Shown here: positions 82 to 14,661 of the stretch, one piece after another
Layout of the letters: the number at the start of each line of letters is the position of its first letter
Position numbering within the stretch: the first letter of the stretch is position 1
Assembly: GCA_016756835.1 (NCBI GenBank)
Contig: JAESPE010000007.1
Coordinates: 1 to 64,000, forward strand
DNA length: 64,000 nt
Source: a gamma proteobacterium endosymbiont of Lamellibrachia anaximandri
GTDB lineage: Bacteria; Pseudomonadota; Gammaproteobacteria; Chromatiales; Chromatiaceae
Direction: 5' to 3'
Translations under genes and position numbers: made by a program
The notes under the pieces: model-generated
Told to the model about the DNA's origin: nothing
Database searches by the model: none
Seen by the model: the letters and a program-made list of their open reading frames with translations, nothing else

Positions 82-1803
82 TTAGCTCGGCACAAGGATC
101 GCCTGGGTAGCTGCGGTTTGAAGCACCCATTCTCCGATGGGTTCGATAAGGCCGCTGACCTCTGCGATGGGGATGAATCGGTTGGGGGAGACCAGCCCCA
201 TACCGGGATGGTTCCACCGTATCAGGGCTTCGACGCCGATGAGTTTGCCGCTGATCAGATCGTATTGCGGCTGGTAGAGCAGAAAGAGCTGATTGAGTTC
301 CAGTGCCCTGCGCAGGCTGATCTCCAAATCAAAAAACTCGAAGGCGGTTTCAGTCAACTTCTGGGTGAAAAAGCGGAAGGTGTTTCGGCCTTGCTCCTTG
401 GCGCTGTACATGGCGGAATCCGCCTGTTTGGTCAATTGGCTGATTTCATCACCGTCATCGGGAAAGATGCTGATGCCTATACTGGCGGAGATCTCCAGGT
501 CATACCCTTTTAGCGGGAAGGGTGCGGAAAAGGTCTTCAACAGGTTTTTTGCGACCTTGGCGGCATCTTCCGCTCGTTGCAGATTTTCGATGACCAAGGT
601 GAACTCATCGCCGCCGATCCGGGCGATCATGTCCTCTTCACGGGCTGTCTGGCGCAGTCTATCCGCAACCTGGAAGAGCAGGTCGTCGCCAACATGGTGT
701 CCCAATGTATCGTTGATGTTTTTGAAGCGATCCAGATCAAGAAAGAAGACGGCACCTCTGCGGTTGACTCGCTTTGAGCGGTGTATCGCCTGTTCCAGCT
801 GTTCGTGAAACAGCGTGCGATTCGGCAGGTGAGTCAAAGGATCATGGGTGGCAATATATTCCAGCTCATCCTGGGAGCGCTTGAGTTCCGATATATCGCT
901 TAGAACCAGGGCGTAGTGAGTTATTCTCTCAATGCTGTCTTTGACTGCGTTGATGCTGAGCCAAAGGTGGTAGGCCAGACCATTGGCGCGGCGGCTCTGT
1001 AATTCCCCGCGCCAGCTGCCCTTGGTGTCTACGATAGACCAGATGATGCGAAGTTTTTCCTCGCTAGCGCTGTTTTTCAGAAAGCGTGGTTCTTGCCCGA
1101 CAGCTTCAGCTTCCAAGTGACCAGTGATATAGGTGAATGCACTGTTGACGAAAATAACCTGGTGGTCCCTATCGAGGATTACCATGCCTTCGGTGACGGC
1201 CTCGAATACCGTGGAGGCAAGCCGCTGGCGAACCTCCGCCTGTTTTCTGTCGGTGATGTCCCTGGCCAGGGTGATCACTGTTTTTTCTCCGTTGAGCCGC
1301 AACTTGGTCGGCGTCATGCGAGCCTCGAACCAGCGTCTGCCTGCCGGTACATCCAGTTCATATTCGAGGATCTGCACCTGCTGCGTATCCAGCGCTTTCT
1401 GCAGCAATGCCATGAAGGCGTCTGCAATCTTTGGGGGGAAGATCTCTTTGGGATGTTTGTTGATGATCTCATTCTCGGGACGGAAGAGTTTATCGTCCCT
1501 CGCCTCTGAGAAGGCCTCATGATAGATGCCCTGTGCATCCTGTAGAAAGAGCAGATCCGGCAGTGCGTTGGCGATCGCTCCCAATCGTGCCTCGGTTGAG
1601 TCTTTGAGTCGCTTATAGAGTTCATGCATCTCATCGGAGGAGATGGTCATGGAGCGCTCGAGGGTATAGCGATCCTGGTCCGACTGCCCATAGGCACGGT
1701 TGATGTGCTGCAGTAATTTACGCCACTGATCCAGGGTGGGGGGGGACTCTGAAGCAGGGTTGAGGCCGATCTTTTTAAGCTGCCGGCGCAACAGGCGGTG
1801 CAT
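82..1803 (-). CDS. PAS-PAS-GGDEF protein with truncated EAL domain
   Basis: Likely a cyclic-di-GMP signalling protein of 573 residues. Two PAS-type sensor domains (about 75-190 and 195-310) precede a complete GGDEF domain (about 315-480) with the active-site motif GGDEF at 397-401 and an RxxD inhibitory site (REED) five residues before it, so diguanylate cyclase activity is plausible. An EAL domain begins (EAL at 525-527, in VEALIRWNHP) but is recognisable only to about residue 567 and stops at 573, roughly a third of its normal length; most phosphodiesterase residues are missing. No other frame over the next 80 bases restores EAL sequence, so this is a disruption and not a single frameshift. 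Its ATG overlaps the stop of the upstream FIST gene by one base (TAATG), which implies coupled translation and a shared signal pathway. Confidence 0.85.
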   Translation of the reverse strand: MHRLLRRQLKKIGLNPASESPPTLDQWRKLLQHINRAYGQSDQDRYTLERSMTISSDEMHELYKRLKDSTEARLGAIANALPDLLFLQDAQGIYHEAFSEARDDKLFRPENEIINKHPKEIFPPKIADAFMALLQKALDTQQVQILEYELDVPAGRRWFEARMTPTKLRLNGEKTVITLARDITDRKQAEVRQRLASTVFEAVTEGMVILDRDHQVIFVNSAFTYITGHLEAEAVGQEPRFLKNSASEEKLRIIWSIVDTKGSWRGELQSRRANGLAYHLWLSINAVKDSIERITHYALVLSDISELKRSQDELEYIATHDPLTHLPNRTLFHEQLEQAIHRSKRVNRRGAVFFLDLDRFKNINDTLGHHVGDDLLFQVADRLRQTAREEDMIARIGGDEFTLVIENLQRAEDAAKVAKNLLKTFSAPFPLKGYDLEISASIGISIFPDDGDEISQLTKQADSAMYSAKEQGRNTFRFFTQKLTETAFEFFDLEISLRRALELNQLFLLYQPQYDLISGKLIGVEALIRWNHPGMGLVSPNRFIPIAEVSGLIEPIGEWVLQTAATQAILVPS

Positions 1804-5739: not shown

Positions 5740-6234
5740 ATGAGCAACTACCGCCGATGCTACCAAGACGGTGGTTGTTATTTCTTTACTGTCGTAACCC
5801 ACCATCGCCAGCCGCTGTTGGCCAGCCCGAAAATCATCGACAGACTGCGTCAGGGTTTTCGCCATATCAGGCAAAAGCATCCCTTCGAGATAGACGCCAT
5901 TGTTGTCCTGCCGGATCACCTGCACAGTATTTGGCGTTTACCGGAAAATGACAGGAATTTTTCGACCCGCTGGCGGTTGCTCAAATATTATGTCTCCACT
6001 GCGGATGATCGAAAAATATGGCAGCCCCGTTTCTGGGAGCATCTGATTCGTGATGAACAGGACTGGCAGCGGCATATGGACTACATCCACTACAACCCGG
6101 TGAAGCATGGTTTGGTAAACATGCCGGCAGATTGGGAATTCAGCTCATTTCATCGTGCATTGAGGCAGGGGTTCTATCTTGCTGAATGGGGGGCGGTGGA
6201 GCCGGATTCCATTGTGGATATGGTGTTGGAGTAA
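5740..6234 (+). CDS. REP-associated tyrosine transposase (RAYT)
   Basis: A 164-residue HUH-family single-strand nuclease of the IS200-like REP-associated group. Visible are the HUH motif as HLH at 60-62 (in VLPDHLHSIW) and the catalytic tyrosine, probably Y115, in DYIHYNPVKHG. RAYTs cut and rejoin REP DNA and are thought to have spread these palindromes; they are normally single-copy and not flanked by terminal repeats like true insertion sequences. GTAG-headed repeats lie directly upstream (5559-5588, 5636-5734) and downstream (6241-6326), as expected for its own substrate. The ATG at 5740 is chosen because the family homology starts there; the open frame extends upstream through the repeats. 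No good ribosome-binding site is seen. Confidence 0.92.
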   Translation: MSNYRRCYQDGGCYFFTVVTHHRQPLLASPKIIDRLRQGFRHIRQKHPFEIDAIVVLPDHLHSIWRLPENDRNFSTRWRLLKYYVSTADDRKIWQPRFWEHLIRDEQDWQRHMDYIHYNPVKHGLVNMPADWEFSSFHRALRQGFYLAEWGAVEPDSIVDMVLE

Positions 6235-6240
6235 GGTGTT

Positions 6241-6326
6241 GCCGGTTCCGCTGCGCTTGAACCGGCCTACATGTGCGGTATGTGCAGCGTCGATTTGTAG
6301 GCCCGATCAAGCGCAGTGGATCGGGC
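6241..6326. repeat. Inverted REP pair (class B then class A)
   Basis: A class B unit reads on the minus strand at 6241-6270 and a class A unit on the plus strand at 6297-6326, with a 26-base spacer. Both carry the GTAG head at their outer or inner foot as expected. The class A loop has one change (AAGCGCAGTG). The pair sits between the convergent 3' ends of the RAYT gene and the NACHT pseudogene. Confidence 0.9.
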
Positions 6327-6336
6327 GATACGGCGG

Positions 6337-9300
6337 TTATTGCAGCAAAAATTGATCGATTGCTGCGATAAGCGGCGCTTCAGCCGCTTTCAGGCCGCAT
6401 GGCCGTTCAGGTTCATCTTCAGGCCAGTCTGCCAATAGCGCATCAAGCGCACTAAGGGGTGACCAGCTACACGTTTCCAGTTGGGTCAGGTCATTGCGTA
6501 ACAACTTTTCGTCTGCCGCCGCAAGCTTCCCCTGAAAGGTGAATTGCAGGATCTTATCGGCATCCTGTAACCAGGCCCGTAGATTCTCCCAGTTTTCACG
6601 CCTTTGCCGCGACAGCATCCGGCCATCTTTATCAAACAACCCCAGTTCGGCGGGCAAGGGTTCACCCTTCCGCTCTCCCCGTCGCTTTGCAATGGCAGGC
6701 TCTCCTGCCTGCTCCTCGAACCAGTCCCATGCGGCGTAGCGCAGGCCGAAAAGAGAGAGGGCAATAAGCAGAGGATCCAACACGGATTCGTGGCTTTTTG
6801 GAGTTATTTTTTTCGTCAATGACTGAAGTCGTTGACGCAGCATATTGCCCAGGCGATCATCTTTTGAAAGTAGTTCCGACAGCGACCACTCATCGAATGC
6901 CCTGCTCGAAGCCATGGACTCAACCAGCAACTGTGCCTGATAGAGTTGCAGGCTGAGGCGGGTGCGGGGCGGCAATTCTTCGGCAGTGTGAATGGCAAGC
7001 AGGACAGGGGGTTGGAAGAACAGATCCCAAAAGACAAGCTCTGGGTCGATGGCTTCACCCTGCAGCAGCCAGAGGTCGGGCGGCAAACGCTCGGCGACCG
7101 CAAGCCAGAGGGGTCCCTGGTCGGGCACCAGGGCATCCAGCGCTAATGCGGTGTTAGTGATCGAGATCAAGTATCCCCCATGGCTATCTTCTCGTACTCG
7201 AGTTGAGAATAATGTCTTATTCGGATCACGCTGGTTCAGCCAGCCAGCCATGACCTCGAGCAGTTCCGGCTCATCCACGGGTCTGCGATCCGGTGTTTCT
7301 GTGTTGGGTGTTAGCCAGTCGCTATGGATAATGAGGGTGAGCAGACTGTAGCTGTGGGCCTCTTTAAGGTCTTGAGAAACATCCCAGCTCTCATCGTCTT
7401 GCGGATTGGCCCAGCGTTGTTCGCCAAGTTCTTGCAGTCGCTCTTGGGCAGTGATATTGAACCCGTTGACAGGTCGGCAGATATGTTGCCAGAGTTCTTC
7501 ATCGTCCCTTGTTTTCAGGAGTTCCATGAACTGCTGTTTTCCGGCTGCGGCCAGCTCCGTGCGTTGTTGGAGTAGTTCGGCCAATTTAAGCGTCGGGTGG
7601 AGCAGGGCCAGCCCGAAGGCGTAACCGAGCCAGGCCTCCCGTCTGTTGCGCCAGGGCAGTTCGTCGCCGATATAGGCCTTGTAGAAGAAGCTGGCGTCTG
7701 TGGTGCGGGTGGGGTCGAGCAGGCAGAAGAGTTCAAGGTGGCCCCGTTTCTGAGTCTGTTCAGCATAAAGCACCATCAACAGCAGGGCGACTTCGTCCCA
7801 GCCGGGTTGGCCGAGATTGGCAAAGAGTTCCTTTTTCAACTGATCCGTGAATTTCAAGATCCCCTTGGCCCCAGCCAGGCCCAGGAGGTGCTCGGCGCAG
7901 AGAAATTCCTGGAAGCTGAGGTGGGCGAACTGGATCTTTCCCTCGGCGGGTTCAACCAGCAGTCCCGCCGGATGCAGATAGTAGTCGAGCAGAACTCCGG
8001 CTTGATCGGGGTCTATGGATACAAAATCATCACCATCGAGTAGCTGCTCGATGGTTTCCACCATCTCCTCTCTTGACCAGACGATGCGGCGGTCTTCCGT
8101 CTCCTTTTCTTTGTGCTCATCAGAGCGCTGCTGGCTGCGCCAGGCAAGATGCCCCAATGCGAGCCGCAGTTCATCTTCCGGCCAGTGGGGCACGTCGCCG
8201 CCAGAGAGGGTGTAACGGCGTCTTCGGTTGCTCTCCTGGCGAACCAGGTAGAGTTCGATGATGGCGCCGTAGAGATCGGCGCGGCCCTCGGGCATGCGGG
8301 TGCGGGAGACATGCACCGAGACATCATGGTCAGGAAGATGGGGCGGCGGGCGAGGGTACGCAGATAGGGACGTTTCTCCAGGGCTTGCTGAAAACGCGCC
8401 AGTCCCTCCTCCATCTGGCGCTTCCACTCGTTGCGCAGTTGATACCAGGTCTCGATGAACTGAAGGATCTGGGGTCCGGCGAAGGGTTGCAGATAGCGCA
8501 GTTGCAACTGTTTTTCGCCAATTGCTGTTCCAGCTTTCCATTCAGCTCTTGGGACATTATCAAGGCCTTACCCATAGAGTCGATAACTTCCTCTTTCCAA
8601 AGACCATACACCAGGCCGCCGAGAAGAAAGGCGAGGCTTGAGATTGTTGTGGTCTGTTCTGTAGTCTTGGTCTTGGCGTCGGCAGCAAACGCCGGAAACT
8701 TGCTGAAATCGAGCCCCTGAAAGCCGTTTGGACGCCCGGTGACCCCGGTGTACGGCCTCAGCGGCAAATACAAGCACCTTCTCTCTCAATGCGTTGCTGC
8801 CGAGTTCATCGAGTCCGTCAAAGAGATAAAGCAGGGGGATGTTGTCGCCATCTGGGTTGATGCTCTGTTGCAGTCGCAGCTTGTCCAGCGGGTGATCTTT
8901 GTGGGCGGCTTCATCCGCCTCCCGCTCAAGCCAGGCCGCCACCAGTTGATCGAGGGTCTCAACGGCCTCGATTTCGGGAAGTTCTCTCAGGATAAGTGGG
9001 ATCGGCAGGATGCCTTGGTTGCTCACCAGTCTCTCCCGCAGGCGACTGAGGCCTTGGCCGCAGAGCTCTATAATCAGCGCCTTGATCAGGGTGGTTTTAC
9101 CGCTGCCCGGGCGGCCGGAGAGCGCCAGAAAGGGGTGTTCTACAATGCAATCCCAGGCATCCTGGCCAATGGCTCTCTCTTCATGCAGTGGCGTCTCCTG
9201 GTCCATCTTCTCATCGTCGGTATCCTCATCCGATAGATAGATTGGGACAAAGATATCCCGCAGGCTGACCGGTGGAGGATCGTCTTCGAACTCAAAGATG

Positions 9301-9395
9301 TCGAGGGCATCGTAGCGGCGCAGCAGCCAGCGAGTATAGTCGCCCCGTGCGCTGATTCTGGCGTTGTTTTCCAGGACGTCGTTCGATTTGCTCAT
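6337..9395 (-). pseudogene. NACHT family NTPase, three frameshifts
   Basis: Joined across frames this encodes about 1000 residues of a STAND-type NACHT NTPase. The first piece (9395 to about 8735) has Walker A GRPGSGKTT at 94-102 and Walker B LLYLFDGLDE. The frame changes near 8735, near 8511-8515 (in a run of five A on the coding strand) and near 8330. The last piece (to 6337) holds the helical part with FAHLSFQEFLCAEHL, a NACHT hallmark, and about 450 residues of unrecognised C-terminal region, possibly a sensor. Between the NTPase core and the winged-helix part is an unusual stretch of about 60 residues with one hydrophobic segment. The ATG overlaps the KAP stop (ATGA). Bacterial NACHT proteins include phage-defence proteins; that role here is inference. 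Sequencing error cannot be ruled out as the cause of the frameshifts. Confidence 0.8.
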
Positions 9396-10974
9396 AATGT
9401 TGATGTTGATGTTGATTCAGGGTCAGGCAGTGACAGGAAGTGGCTATCGAGGATGTCGTCTTTGTCGAAGACGGCTTCAAACAGGGTTTTGAAGGTCTCG
9501 TCGGAGCGTTTACGATCCAACCGGTCGATAAAGAGATTGACAGCCTGTTCGAGTTCCATGTTCCGGTGCCTGGATTCAAGACTTGATGGGGTCCCACGTA
9601 GTGTGGATTCGACAGTGTCCTGCAATACATGCGCGAAGGCGCGGGAGAACATCTCCTGGGCCAGCCGTTGATCAGGAAGTTTCAGACCCTTCATATCGAG
9701 AGGTTCAGTTTCAGATGCGCCGGTAATGGTGCGGTGCAGCAGTTTCAGCGTTTGTGGTTGACGCTCCAACAGTCGCCATACCGGTCGATGGTTGAGTCGG
9801 AGATACTGGAAGAGAATCAACTTGCGTAACAAGTCAGTATCGTCGACCTTCCAGCCATGTCCAAGCCCCAGTTCCCATGCTGCGCAGAGGCTGTTGGTAA
9901 AATTCTTGAGCTTGCGGGGATTGGGTTCAAGCAGATTTGTAATGTCTTCCGTACACTGCCGGGCCGTTGTGGAGTTGATTTTATGCTGCCTGAGTTGTTT
10001 GGCAATCTCGGTTTTGACGGCGGTTCGATTGGGTTGAGGGATTGCCAACGTGGCCTGGAAGAGCTTGTCGAGGTAGTCCCTGTTATCGTCTTCGGAGCGG
10101 TCTTGCCAGTGCCGGGAGAGTGTGCCGAGCAGGGCGGTATCATCCAGTCCGAGCACGAAGACACAGCGGCGGCTGCCGAGATAGAGTTTGATGCTCTCCA
10201 GCAGTGTGACGGCGACTGACTCTTCGCAACGGTCGAGATCATCGATGAAGATGATGAGTCGGGCGCCGGTTTCCAGTTCAGAAGGGTTATCTTTACCTGC
10301 GATAGTGGTGAGTATGTTTTCCACCGCATCCTGAAATAGCAGATGGAAGCGTTGACCATCACTCAACTCTGTAAGGTTTGGCGCTGCCTCGTTCCAGGCT
10401 TTACGCACGGAATCAGAGGCGCCGCGAGCGACATTGACATTGCGCCCTATAGAGAGGGTTGCGGCAGCATCGAGAACCAGTTCGATGAGTTTGAGTCCCG
10501 CCAATCCCCCGCCCGGTTGATGTTTTTTGCTTTCTCTTTGAGTTTAATCCAGGTGCTGAACTGGGTTCTGATTTCCAACAGCAGGGGAATCAGGGAGTTT
10601 TGTTCGTTCTGATGCTGCCAGGGTGAGAACCATATCGACAGGCACTGGCCTGCCGTTGATTTCAGACCTTCGCCCCATTCAAGTTTGCGTTTTCTTTTTG
10701 TGTTATCGAAAGCGAGGGCTTTCCAGTGTGCCGTTTCTCTTTCAGAGATGGCTTTTTCGAATGCCAGTCCCTGTTGCAGGGAGTTTCCTTTAAGGGTGGC
10801 GAAAGCTGTGCGCATGACGCTGGTCTTGCCACTGCCCCATTTGCCGGTTATGCCGAGGGTGAAGGGTGGGTCTGTATCCAGCGCCATGCGAGCGAGGATG
10901 TCACCCGTGCCGCCCAAGCCGAAGCTGTCGTCAAGATTCCACTGGTCGTTTTTGTATCGTCCCTTGGCTGCCAT
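9392..10974 (-). pseudogene. KAP family P-loop NTPase, one frameshift
   Basis: Two pieces join into a protein of about 525 residues. The first (10974 to about 10505) carries Walker A GKWGSGKTS at 44-52, the form typical of KAP NTPases; the second carries Walker B LIIFIDDLDRC and the rest of the NTPase domain to 9392. The frame changes at a run of five C on the plus strand (10506-10510), so one base is missing there or was lost in assembly. KAP NTPases are often membrane-linked and some act in phage exclusion. The gene is translationally coupled to the following NACHT gene. The C-terminus ends in a short Ser-Thr repeat coded by GTTGAT-type hexamers. A good ribosome-binding site (GGAGAG) precedes the ATG. 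Confidence 0.82.
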
Positions 10975-11052: not shown

Positions 11053-11191
11053 GCCGGTTCCGCTACGCATGAACCTGCCTACATGGGATCTCGGTGGGAG
11101 CTTAAACGGGTTTGCCGGTTCCATCGCGCTTGAACTGGCCTACATGTGCGGGGATAGCTTCGTAGGCCTGATCAAGCGCAGCGGATCGGGC
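11053..11191. repeat. Cluster of three REP units
   Basis: Two class B units on the minus strand (11053-11082 and a more decayed one at 11114-11143) and one class A unit on the plus strand (11162-11191). The cluster lies between the start of the KAP gene and the end of the lipoprotein gene and fills most of the 234-base gap. Confidence 0.85.
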
Positions 11192-11208: not shown

Positions 11209-14200
11209 CTAAGGGGTTTCAAACGCCCCCATATCCGGTGCTGCGCCGTTGTATTTCAGGGCCACGCCCTGTCCTGCGTTCCAGGTCAGTGTACGGTCGA
11301 GGGTGATGGTGTGGCTGGCATAGTTGATCCCGACAATAATGGCAGTCTCACTACTACCCTGTAGCTGGATCTCATCCCCGGCCTCACCGTCGATGCCGAA
11401 ACCGTCGTAGAAGTAACCGGCATCATCGACCACCAGGGTGGTGCCGCTACCGCTGCCCACAGTGGTGGTGAGGAAACGTCCGGCATCGATCATCGGGCTC
11501 GTGGATTCGAGGGTGAAATCACGGTTGACCTCGTCCACGAACTGCGGGTCCTGCTCCAGGTTGTTTACATAGAAAGCAGGTTTAGTGTTCTGCGCATCGA
11601 CCAGTGAGATGCCGCTGCTGCCCCAGTGTCCGATCACATTATCCCCAACGTTGCCGGAGAAGAAGTTGTTGCTGTCGAACTGATAACCCGACATGTCGTT
11701 GCGGTAGACGTGCTGGTAGGGAGCGTCGGGTCTTTCGCAGTCTGTGTTTTTGTTGAGGATGTTGTTGGCGAAGAGGTTGTCCTCAAAGCCCCCCACTGAA
11801 GAGTCCATTGTGGTGATGCCGCCACAGAGATTTTTGTGGAAGACGTTGTTGTAGACCCGGTTGTGGGTGTTGAAACGGGCCTCCGGGCTGTAATTCTGCA
11901 TGCCGAGACCGGAGTTGTTCGCATAGAAAACATTCTGGCGAATGATGCCGTTTTGGCCTGCATATTGGATGCCGTTGCCGCCGGAGGTGCTGTAATAAGC
12001 GTTGGTTTTGGCAAAGGTATTGCCTTCCACCAGATTGTACTTGGTGGCGTCGTGAATGGTGAACTCGTGATCGAAGCCCACATTGTCGCAGTCGTAGATC
12101 TCGCCGATCTTCTGGATTTCGTTATAGAAATAGTTATTGCGGATCACGTTGAAGTTGCCGCACTTGATCACCCAGAGCGTATGGCTTGCACGCACAAAGG
12201 TGTTGCCTTCAACCAGATTGTAATCCGACTTGATCAGGGCAAGGTTGTCTTGGGTGGAGTCCTCGATGGTGTTGTTGAGAATCTTGTTATGTGTCGACTC
12301 CTGAAAGAACAGGCCGGTCTTGGCGCTGGTGCTGCCGTGGCTCGCCCGCAGGAAGCTGTTGTACTGCAGGATGTTGTAATGGGCGTTGAGGGCATACATC
12401 CAGCGATAGACATCGTGAACCCGCAAGCCCTGCAGAATAAGGTAGTCGCGATTGGAGATGTCGATGGCCGGACTGAGGTCGGTGCCGGTGATCGTCGCCT
12501 GCTCCGATTCGTAGTTGCGATAGGTGATGTAGTTGCCGGGTGTGCCGGAGTTCTGCGGAATCAGCGCCTCATTGTAGTCGCCTTCGCGAATCAAAACGGT
12601 TTCACCGGCGACCGCCGCTGCGGCGGCCCCGCTCAGGTTGCGAAAGGCCGTGTCGGAACCCGCACCGCAGGCACGGCTGCCAACATCGTAATCGTTGCAA
12701 CTCGACGCGCCGATGAGCGGGTCGACATAGAGGCTGTTGTCCCCGCCTGGCGCGGGTGCGGTGACGATGATCTGGAAGGCGTTCAGCGTTGCGCTCTCGG
12801 TACCGTCTGAGACAGAGATGCCGATATTGCTATAGTTGCCGGCCGTGCCTGTGCCAGGCGTGCCGGAGAGCTGCCCGCTGGCAGTGTTGAAGCTGGCCCA
12901 GGCCGGCTTGTTGACGATGCTGAAGACCAGGTTGTCACCATCCGGATCAGAGGCGCTGGGAGTGAAGCTGTAGGCTGTGCCCTCTGTGGCATTGCCGGCA
13001 GGTGAGCCGGAGATGCTCGGTGCTTGGTTTGTGTTGCTGACGATGATGGAAAAAACGGCCAGTGAGGTACTCTCAGTGCCGTCGGTCACGCTGATAAGGA
13101 TATCGCCCCAGATCCCGGCATCATTGTAGCCAGGGTTGCCGAACAGTTGGCCGGTGGTGGGATCGAAACCGGCCCAGTTTGGTTTGTTGGTGATACTGAA
13201 GCTCAGTGCGTCACCATCCGCATCGGATGCGCTCGGGGTAAACGTATAAGTCGCTTTTTCGGCAACACTGGTGGCCGGTGTGCCGGTGATGGTCGGTGCG
13301 CTGTTGGCATTGCTGTTACTGCTGACGACAATAGTAAAGCCCGCCAGTGAGGCGCTCTCTGTGCCGTCGGTCACTCTGATGAGGATATTGCCATAGCTGC
13401 CTGCCGTGCCGGCGCCGGGCGTGCCGGATAGATTTCCAGTCGCAGTGTTGAAACTGGCCCAAGATGGCGGGTTGCTGATACTGAAGATCAGCGCGTCGCC
13501 GTCCGCATCGGATGCGTTGGGTGTAAAGCTGTAGGTCGAGCCTTCAGTGACACTGCTGGCAGGAGACCCATTGATGACCGGTGCCTGGTTGGTAGCGCCG
13601 CCGCCATCATTGATGGCCTGCAGTCCATTCTGGATGGCGCTGTCGAGGCGGGTGGTGCTGTCCGCAGGAAGCCCATTGCGAACGGTGGCGACGTCACTGC
13701 CGGCAGTGAGGGCAGCAAGATCGCTGTTGATGTCGTCGAGTGTTGCTGTAGGATCGAAATTGGTTGCTGTTGCCAGCGCAAGGCGGGTCTGCTGTATCAG
13801 GTCGCCGGTGATCAGCACGTGACCAGTGCCTGCCAGGGAGCCGGGCAGAACGGTGCCGATGGCGGCGTCCATGGACGGAGTGGCATCCACTCCGTTGACT
13901 TGAAGTTGGTTGATCATGGTCTCCAGCAGTACTGCGCCGGAGATGATGTTGGCCATGTCTGCGATCTGAGGTTGGCCATTGCTGCCATCCAGTTGGCCGT
14001 TGACAAGATCATCAGCCAGAAGCTCGATCAACTGATTGATATCGAGATTTGTGCCTGCATCGAGGATGGCATCGCGGGTGCGGCGCAGCCACTCCCCCAT
14101 CGCTTCCGATGATTTTATGATCTGGGCGACATTGCTCTCCCCAATATCGGTGTGCAGCGGGTCGTTGACCTGCTGCATGTCCAGACCGAAAGCGAATCGA

Positions 14201-14661
14201 GTGAGGACGGTGTTCTGTGCAGTTTGCATGTTGGCGGCGCTGAGTCCACCAGGTAGTTTTTCCGCCAACGCCACGATCAGGCTGGAGTGGGGCGTCATGT
14301 TTGCCCTGGTTTCTCCCGGTGCCAGGATGGTGCTGCGAAGATTGAACTCGGGTGCGCTTCCGGAAACCAGGTCGGTGCCGCCAGTTGCTTCGACTGTGAG
14401 GGGGTAGTCTTCAGGCAGAACATCGACAGTGAAGTGGTAATCTGCCTGGGCGTCGGAGCTGGTGGTAGCCAGTACCTGGCCGGCAGTATTGCGCAGGGTG
14501 ACCTGAGCGTTGACTACCGGGCCGTCGCCCACGCTGCCGACAAAAGTGGTTTTGGTGGCAGTTTGATCGGTTCCTTCGTCGGTAGTGCCGCCGCCACAGG
14601 CGGCAAGCAGGAGAACCAGTAGCGTGGTGAGGAAGGTTTTGGAGAAAGTAGTGTTTAACAT
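11209..14661 (-). CDS. Large lipoprotein with Ig-like repeats and beta-helix
   Basis: A 1150-residue secreted protein. A lipoprotein signal (lipobox LLAAC, Cys22) is followed by a short carboxypeptidase-regulatory-like domain (about 38-90), a helical region, three tandem putative Ig (He_PIG-like) repeats (about 359-446, 455-543 and 547-634), and from about 643 a right-handed parallel beta-helix with many Asn-rich turns (NNTIEDS, EGNTFVR, RNNYFYN) that ends in DMGAFE. Such helices are common in polysaccharide lyases, epimerases and adhesins; no catalytic site can be assigned. It probably sits on the outer membrane surface and binds or processes glycans (inference). It is divergent from phoB, with a long palindrome between them. 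A phage-like or symbiosis role is possible but not shown. Confidence 0.82.
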   Translation of the reverse strand: MLNTTFSKTFLTTLLVLLLAACGGGTTDEGTDQTATKTTFVGSVGDGPVVNAQVTLRNTAGQVLATTSSDAQADYHFTVDVLPEDYPLTVEATGGTDLVSGSAPEFNLRSTILAPGETRANMTPHSSLIVALAEKLPGGLSAANMQTAQNTVLTRFAFGLDMQQVNDPLHTDIGESNVAQIIKSSEAMGEWLRRTRDAILDAGTNLDINQLIELLADDLVNGQLDGSNGQPQIADMANIISGAVLLETMINQLQVNGVDATPSMDAAIGTVLPGSLAGTGHVLITGDLIQQTRLALATATNFDPTATLDDINSDLAALTAGSDVATVRNGLPADSTTRLDSAIQNGLQAINDGGGATNQAPVINGSPASSVTEGSTYSFTPNASDADGDALIFSISNPPSWASFNTATGNLSGTPGAGTAGSYGNILIRVTDGTESASLAGFTIVVSSNSNANSAPTITGTPATSVAEKATYTFTPSASDADGDALSFSITNKPNWAGFDPTTGQLFGNPGYNDAGIWGDILISVTDGTESTSLAVFSIIVSNTNQAPSISGSPAGNATEGTAYSFTPSASDPDGDNLVFSIVNKPAWASFNTASGQLSGTPGTGTAGNYSNIGISVSDGTESATLNAFQIIVTAPAPGGDNSLYVDPLIGASSCNDYDVGSRACGAGSDTAFRNLSGAAAAAVAGETVLIREGDYNEALIPQNSGTPGNYITYRNYESEQATITGTDLSPAIDISNRDYLILQGLRVHDVYRWMYALNAHYNILQYNSFLRASHGSTSAKTGLFFQESTHNKILNNTIEDSTQDNLALIKSDYNLVEGNTFVRASHTLWVIKCGNFNVIRNNYFYNEIQKIGEIYDCDNVGFDHEFTIHDATKYNLVEGNTFAKTNAYYSTSGGNGIQYAGQNGIIRQNVFYANNSGLGMQNYSPEARFNTHNRVYNNVFHKNLCGGITTMDSSVGGFEDNLFANNILNKNTDCERPDAPYQHVYRNDMSGYQFDSNNFFSGNVGDNVIGHWGSSGISLVDAQNTKPAFYVNNLEQDPQFVDEVNRDFTLESTSPMIDAGRFLTTTVGSGSGTTLVVDDAGYFYDGFGIDGEAGDEIQLQGSSETAIIVGINYASHTITLDRTLTWNAGQGVALKYNGAAPDMGAFETP

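What the first reader, a model, noticed from the sequence alone, without database searches (positions are those of the whole stretch)
6337..10974. Coupled KAP - NACHT NTPase cassette, a possible decayed defence system
Two large P-loop NTPases, one KAP (GKWGSGKTS, IIFIDDLDRC) and one NACHT (GRPGSGKTT, LFDGLDE, FAHLSFQEF), overlap by ATGA and so form one expressed unit. NACHT proteins and some KAP proteins take part in phage defence; I do not know of a described system made of just this pair. It lies in an accessory block with REP units on both sides. Both genes carry frameshifts.
Basis: partly seen in the sequence, partly recalled or inferred. Interest (0 to 1): 0.62.

Follow-up and report, generated by a model that had tools for sequence, protein, structure and literature searches.

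The report
Decayed two-ATPase cassette (KAP + NACHT)
A broken copy, in a deep-sea tubeworm symbiont, of a recurrent two-gene cassette that pairs a KAP ATPase with a bacterial relative of animal NLR immune receptors; intact copies in other bacteria carry an odd two-amino-acid repeat array that may be a fast-changing sensor, so it is a good candidate for an undescribed phage-defence system.

Summary
Window 6337-10974 (minus strand) encodes a KAP NTPase and a NACHT NTPase that overlap by ATGA, with one frameshift in KAP and three lesions in NACHT. The decay is real: the tubeworm symbiont of Escarpia has both genes intact, and the Lamellibrachia symbiont shares the 14-bp NACHT deletion and has its own KAP nonsense codon. 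Three other genomes of the genus have an empty site.

The pair is a true two-gene module: in all 24 genomes where it could be tested (several phyla), this KAP is followed directly by this NACHT, usually within 10 nt, in unrelated surroundings. Known KAP relatives are the defence ATPases RdrA, QatA, PifA and PADLOC PDC-S20. The NACHT part folds like NLRP3/NLRC4/NOD2 and has no N-terminal effector domain. I infer a two-subunit bacterial NLR in which KAP replaces the fused effector. Defence function is not shown; only one copy lies in an evident defence island.

The window's array has shrunk by 31 units. It may be a hypervariable sensor.

The parts
9392..10974 (-). KAP-family P-loop NTPase gene, broken by one frameshift near 10505 (intact orthologue 523 aa)
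   Evidence: Pfam PF07693 over cut-off; intact in L017/L022; 90-94% identity to the genus relatives
6337..9395 (-). NACHT (bacterial NLR-type STAND) NTPase gene, broken by three lesions (intact orthologue 1086 aa)
   Evidence: orthologue passes PF05729; NLR fold of residues 9-625 of the orthologue
9392..9395 (-). ATGA overlap of KAP stop and NACHT start
   Evidence: Sequence; the same -4 overlap in 6 of 15 distinct homologous loci, 13 of 15 within -8 to +10 nt
8734..8735 (-). Site of a 14-bp deletion in NACHT, just after Walker B, shared with the Lamellibrachia anaximandri symbiont
   Evidence: DNA alignment with G003 and G004
6878..6886 (-). Remnant (TCGCTGTCG, Ser-Leu-Ser) of the hexanucleotide/dipeptide array; 31 units shorter than in the Escarpia symbiont
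   Evidence: Protein alignment; array in the orthologue
6241..6340 (.). REP pair on the NACHT side of the cassette
   Evidence: blastn against relatives, alignment with empty sites
11114..11191 (.). REP pair on the KAP side, direct repeat of the other one
5740..6234 (+). REP-associated tyrosine transposase (RAYT); not part of the cassette, absent at this site in the Escarpia symbiont
   Evidence: NCBIfam NF047646, 181.7 bits against cut-off 80; not in L017

Best explanation
A decayed copy of a horizontally spread, two-gene bacterial NLR system. The NACHT protein is the switch: an NLR-type NACHT module that would bind a trigger through its C-terminal region and oligomerise on NTP. It has no N-terminal effector domain, so the co-translated KAP ATPase most likely supplies the effector or transducing step, as KAP ATPases take part in other defence systems (RdrA, QatA, PifA). 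The C-terminal dipeptide array is probably a fast-changing part of the sensing region. The likely purpose is abortive-type phage defence. Shown: coupling, families, NLR fold, array, decay, empty site. Inferred: division of labour, array as sensor, phage as trigger.
For: Invariable KAP-NACHT adjacency in 24 of 24 testable genomes, tight spacing. KAP and NACHT pairwise identities correlate: r = 0.95 for 12 pairs, 0.68 for the 10 closer pairs, 1 of 1000 permutations as high. KAP resembles PDC-S20 (1.2e-27), QatA and PifA models, RdrA by sequence and by fold. The NACHT model matches NLRP3/NLRC4/NOD2, Z 17-19 over residues 9-625. Patchy distribution: 8 of 398 sampled Pseudomonadota, 1 of 247 in the phylum of G486; presence/absence within one genus. 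dN/dS 0.12-0.16 for KAP and the NACHT N-terminus, so selected before decay.
Against: No experiment. Only one of the surveyed neighbourhoods is an evident defence island. Neither protein has a recognised nuclease, NADase or membrane effector; the KAP role is by analogy. KAP and NACHT families also have members with other or unknown roles.
Confidence: 0.6

Rival explanations
1. The pair is a regulated cell-death or signalling system of aggregated or filamentous bacteria rather than a phage-defence system as such.
For: Hosts of intact copies include Thiothrix, Leucothrix and Thiotrichales; NTPase conflict systems are reported as preponderant in multicellular prokaryotes (PMC7159879). Neighbourhoods are mostly not defence islands.
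Against: Also found in Methylococcales, Acidobacteriota, a magnetococcus plasmid and symbionts; patchy, mobile-like distribution and closest KAP relatives in defence.
Confidence: 0.2
2. The frameshifts are assembly or sequencing errors and the window copy works.
For: Draft assembly of 263 contigs; three of the four frame-breaking indels are single bases.
Against: 14-bp deletion shared with an independent assembly, whose KAP also has a nonsense codon; neighbouring genes argS, priA, the SPOR and FIST genes keep the lengths of their orthologues.
Confidence: 0.05
3. The dipeptide array is a neutral microsatellite in a tolerant linker, with no role in sensing.
For: Hexanucleotide slippage explains homogeneous codons (33 of 33 TCG in L022) and higher-order units; AlphaFold gives it pLDDT about 30; four of 19 KAP-linked NACHTs lack it and others have only traces; similar arrays occur in some viral contigs.
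Against: Same place in the protein in several phyla with different codons and residues (S-L/R/Q, A-L/R/Q, A/D-M/R, D-R/L, A-Q); in the old arrays of L024 and L025 the dipeptide pattern stays while codons differ synonymously; 15 of 19 KAP-linked NACHTs against 1 of 14 other NACHTs and 1 of 214 other ORFs.
Confidence: 0.35
4. The cassette is cargo of the REP/RAYT system or another mobile element, without benefit to the cell.
For: Direct REP pairs flank it, and the empty site has one pair; a RAYT gene lies beside it.
Against: RAYT is absent at the intact Escarpia copy; purifying selection on both genes.
Confidence: 0.1

Closest known systems
bNACHT / bacterial NLR-related proteins (e.g. bNACHT25, clade 14 bNACHTs)
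   Same: NACHT module with NLR fold, C-terminal putative sensor region; like clade 14 no discernible N-terminal effector (PMC12169576)
   Different: Obligate upstream KAP partner gene; long C-terminal helical region with dipeptide array; no profile match to a described bNACHT family in PADLOC or NCBIfam
PADLOC candidate PDC-S20 (KAP protein)
   Same: Best profile match of the KAP, 95 bits over residues 100-339
   Different: PDC-S20 is, to my knowledge, a single-gene candidate; here a NACHT always follows
RADAR RdrA
   Same: Top fold match of the KAP model and a sequence match to 8fnu
   Different: Low TM-score (about 0.45), the partner is NACHT instead of RdrB, shorter protein
QatABCD (QatA) and PifA
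   Same: KAP ATPases of phage defence; QatA model matches KAP with 77.9 bits
   Different: Far below the QatA equivalog cut-off of 600; the next gene is NACHT, not qatB
DGR-diversified NACHT/STAND sensors (PMC10907252) and fungal NLRs with near-identical repeats (PMC12222747)
   Same: NLR whose C-terminal sensor region is, or may be, diversified
   Different: Here the unit is a 6-bp, two-residue repeat rather than a DGR variable region or a WD40 repeat

Membership tests
KAP P-loop NTPases | PF07693 over the curated cut-off, Walker A and DDLDR-type Walker B | tested here: met
   99.2 bits against 20 for the orthologue; GKWGSGKTS and FIDDLDRCEE nearly invariant in 13 homologues
KAP P-loop NTPases | Transmembrane insert in the NTPase domain seen in part of the family | not tested
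   No transmembrane predictor was run; no obvious long hydrophobic stretch in the alignment
Bacterial NACHT (NLR-related) proteins | NACHT module by profile and fold | tested here: met
   PF05729 27.7 against 26.7; Z 17-19 to NLRP3, NLRC4, NOD2
Bacterial NACHT (NLR-related) proteins | Fused N-terminal effector domain (tripartite architecture) | tested here: not met
   P-loop at residue ~94; no Pfam domain before it. Clade 14 members also lack a discernible one (PMC12169576)
Bacterial NACHT (NLR-related) proteins | Protection against phage | not testable with these tools
   Needs experiment
QatABCD | QatA equivalog score and qatBCD neighbours | tested here: not met
   77.9 bits against 600; next gene is NACHT in every testable case
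RADAR | RdrA with RdrB adenosine deaminase next to it | tested here: not met
   RdrA-like fold but the adjoining partner gene is NACHT; no RdrB among the 25 neighbour matches shown
PADLOC PDC-S20 | Match to the single-gene KAP models | tested here: inconclusive
   1.2e-27 to PDLC04959 over about half of the model; PADLOC's own thresholds not shown
DGR target | Reverse transcriptase and template repeat nearby | tested here: inconclusive
   No reverse transcriptase in the 25 most frequent Pfam families of 111 neighbours; full list not shown

The most novel reading that the evidence does not exclude
A two-subunit bacterial NLR (NACHT switch plus separate KAP ATPase effector) whose sensor is diversified by expansion, contraction and single-base changes of a hexanucleotide array, which writes a string of alternating Ser/Ala and Leu/Arg/Gln residues: a third route to a variable NLR sensor besides diversity-generating retroelements and long recombining repeats.
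Probability: 0.25. Interest if true: 0.82.

Novelty: new variant of a known kind. Interest (0 to 1): 0.58.

Why it matters
If true, phage defence in bacteria includes NLRs that split switch and effector into two proteins, much as paired plant NLRs split roles, with a KAP ATPase as partner. The dipeptide array would be an unusually simple, countable record of sensor diversification that can be read directly from sequence and altered in the laboratory. It also shows immune-gene loss in tubeworm symbionts, a lineage whose described phage defences are mainly CRISPR, restriction and toxin-antitoxin genes (PMC10300362).

Tried and rejected
Sequencing error as cause of all lesions: rejected by the shared 14-bp deletion. 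Programmed frameshifting: rejected, orthologues are single frames. QatA or RADAR membership: rejected on score and neighbours. Phage-borne cassette: the KAP finds nothing in 50,697 phage records; plasmids give distant KAPs and one Magnetococcus massalia plasmid with both genes broken by insertion sequences. Array as a generic genomic repeat: among 92 relatives, arrays that mix CTG and CGG units occur only in the two genomes with an intact cassette, the other two matches being homogeneous; in 398 Pseudomonadota three genomes had short, homogeneous or nearly homogeneous arrays. Viral contigs do hold some short mixed arrays outside NACHT genes, so the array type is not exclusive. Literature: no paper in the held library describes a KAP-NACHT pair or prints such repeats. 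One dN/dS estimate (NACHT C-terminal part) failed through a wrong offset and is not used. The fold of the C-terminal half of NACHT was not tested on its own.

Full report
OBSERVATION. The stretch 6337-10974 holds two genes on the minus strand. KAP is read in two frames (10974-10447 and 10504-9392) and NACHT in several (9395-8568, 8773-8330, 8507-8013, 8541-6337). Pfam confirms KAP_NTPase above its cut-off in both KAP pieces; the first NACHT piece is just below the NACHT cut-off, and the intact orthologue is above it. The KAP stop and NACHT start overlap as ATGA at 9392-9395. The genome has no other KAP match.

DECAY. In the same genus, G003 (endosymbiont of Escarpia spicata, by the record title) has both genes intact: KAP 523 aa and NACHT 1086 aa, again with ATGA. 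Against it the window has one 1-bp frameshift in KAP and, in NACHT, a 14-bp deletion just after Walker B and two 1-bp frameshifts. G004 (symbiont of Lamellibrachia anaximandri) carries the same 14-bp deletion, loses similarity further on, and has a TAG at KAP codon 12. So NACHT was damaged in a common ancestor, or the deletion spread, and KAP decayed separately in the two lines. dN/dS of 0.12-0.16 for KAP and the NACHT N-terminus between G003 and the others shows earlier purifying selection; argS gives 0.06-0.08. Synonymous divergence of the cassette (0.31-0.38) exceeds that of argS (0.19), so its history may not be the same as the chromosome's.

SITE. In G001, G002 and G005 of the same genus the beta-helix lipoprotein gene is followed directly by argS: the empty site, with a single REP pair. 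In G003 and in the window the cassette sits between two REP pairs in direct orientation. Gain by REP-targeted insertion and loss by recombination between the two pairs both fit. The RAYT gene at 5740-6234 is a separate insertion, absent at this place in G003.

A RECURRENT MODULE. A search of genome contigs with the KAP gave 18 loci; 17 have a NACHT relative directly downstream, the exception being a remote KAP of 28% identity. A profile search of 398 Pseudomonadota added seven genomes besides the window's own; six of them have the NACHT next to the KAP, while the seventh contig ends at the KAP. With G048 this makes 24 of 24 testable genomes, among them Gammaproteobacteria, Desulfobacterota, Nitrospirota, Acidobacteriota and Kapabacteria (taxa by record title; the class of the unnamed G genomes is not told). 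Spacing is within -8 to +10 nt in 13 of 15 loci, six with the four-base overlap. KAP and NACHT distances correlate. The neighbours differ from genome to genome; of 111 scanned, most are metabolic or regulatory, and one locus, L032, is an evident defence island with HEC-01 and BREX/DISARM-type helicase relatives. The cassette is rare: 2% of the Pseudomonadota sample and 1 of 247 in the phylum sample around G486. Other copies are broken too: on the Magnetococcus massalia plasmid by IS4 and IS1380 elements, and in L026 and L038 by split frames.

WHAT THE PROTEINS ARE. KAP: best PADLOC matches PDC-S20 (1.2e-27), QatA (2.8e-17) and PifA (1.8e-16); NCBIfam QatA 77.9 bits, far below its cut-off of 600; sequence match to the S. 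suis RdrA structure 8fnu; the AlphaFold model (mean pLDDT 74) has RdrA of RADAR as its top fold match, TM-score about 0.45. NACHT: the model (mean pLDDT 75) matches NLRP3, NLRC4 and NOD2 with Z 17-19 over residues 9-625. Its P-loop lies at residue ~94, and nothing recognisable precedes it. The C-terminal 460 residues match no Pfam family.

THE ARRAY. Aligning the intact NACHTs exposed a low-complexity tract at one place in the C-terminal region, encoded by a 6-bp tandem array. In L022 it is 31.5 copies of TCGCTG: TCG in all 33 odd codons, and CTG, CGG or once CGA in the even ones. Others read TCG-C[T/G/A]G, TCA-C[T/G]G or TGG, GCG-C[T/G/A]G, or A[T/G]G-G[C/A]T. The protein string alternates Ser with Leu/Arg/Gln, or Ala with Leu/Arg/Gln, or Met/Arg with Ala/Asp. 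In the older arrays of L024 and L025 the codons differ synonymously while the dipeptide stays, which suggests selection on the protein. With a simple period-2 score, 214 other ORFs of 200 aa or more score 1-4 apart from one of 8, a PE/PQ-rich repeat; 15 of 19 KAP-linked NACHTs score 6 or more (12 score 9 or more), against 1 of 14 other NACHTs (Fisher p = 6e-5; sequences are related, so this is descriptive). The one exception, L103 in G027, is a NACHT without KAP carrying an R-D/R-A array, so the feature is not confined to this cassette. In the window the array is reduced to TCGCTGTCG, an in-frame loss of 31 units between well-aligned flanks.

HOW IT MOST LIKELY WORKS. Shown: two genes always together and tightly spaced, an NLR-type switch without a fused effector, a KAP ATPase of a family used in defence. 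Inferred: the C-terminal region senses a trigger, NACHT oligomerises, and KAP, recruited or released, carries out or passes on the response; the array varies the sensing surface. Phage as the trigger is inferred from the relatives and from the patchy, mobile-like distribution.

KNOWN OR NEW. Searches of the held open-access library found no description of a KAP-NACHT pair and no print of these repeats; Kibby et al. 2023 and the 2004 KAP paper are not held, so absence there was not checked. The reports nearest in idea are DGR-diversified STAND sensors (PMC10907252; some targets use a KAP NTPase instead) and fungal NLRs with repeats of high internal conservation (PMC12222747). From memory, not tested: similar alternating strings occur in cyanobacterial NACHT proteins.

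VERDICT. A real, decayed copy of a recurrent and apparently undescribed two-gene NLR-type module; defence is probable, not shown; the repeat array is the part most worth following.

Noticed in passing
window 5740-6234: REP-associated tyrosine transposase gene embedded among REP units beside the cassette; absent at this place in the Escarpia symbiont.
   Followed up: partly
window 11209-14661: Beta-helix lipoprotein gene with internal repeats whose length varies among genus members (about 1092 to 1244 aa); L144 has a second copy.
   Followed up: no
L103:6982-10605: NACHT protein without a KAP neighbour that carries a long R-D/R-A dipeptide array (CGG-GAT/CGG-GCT hexamers) in its C-terminal region.
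   Followed up: partly
L083 (Candidatus Magnetococcus massalia plasmid NZ_LO017728.1): KAP and NACHT genes near each other on a plasmid, interrupted by IS4 and IS1380 family transposases.
   Followed up: partly
L129, L141, L127, L135 (viral contigs): Mixed TCGCTG/TCGCGG arrays in short open frames of IMG/VR contigs, not in NACHT genes; in L129 two arrays follow the same short leader. Origin unexplained.
   Followed up: no
window 82-1803: The GGDEF-EAL type gene at the contig edge ends early (573 aa against 749 in the Escarpia symbiont); may be a contig-end effect.
   Followed up: partly
L019:6944-9766: In G048 the frame of the KAP gene is open for 940 aa, starting about 390 codons upstream of the KAP homology; an N-terminal extension or just a high-GC open frame.
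   Followed up: no
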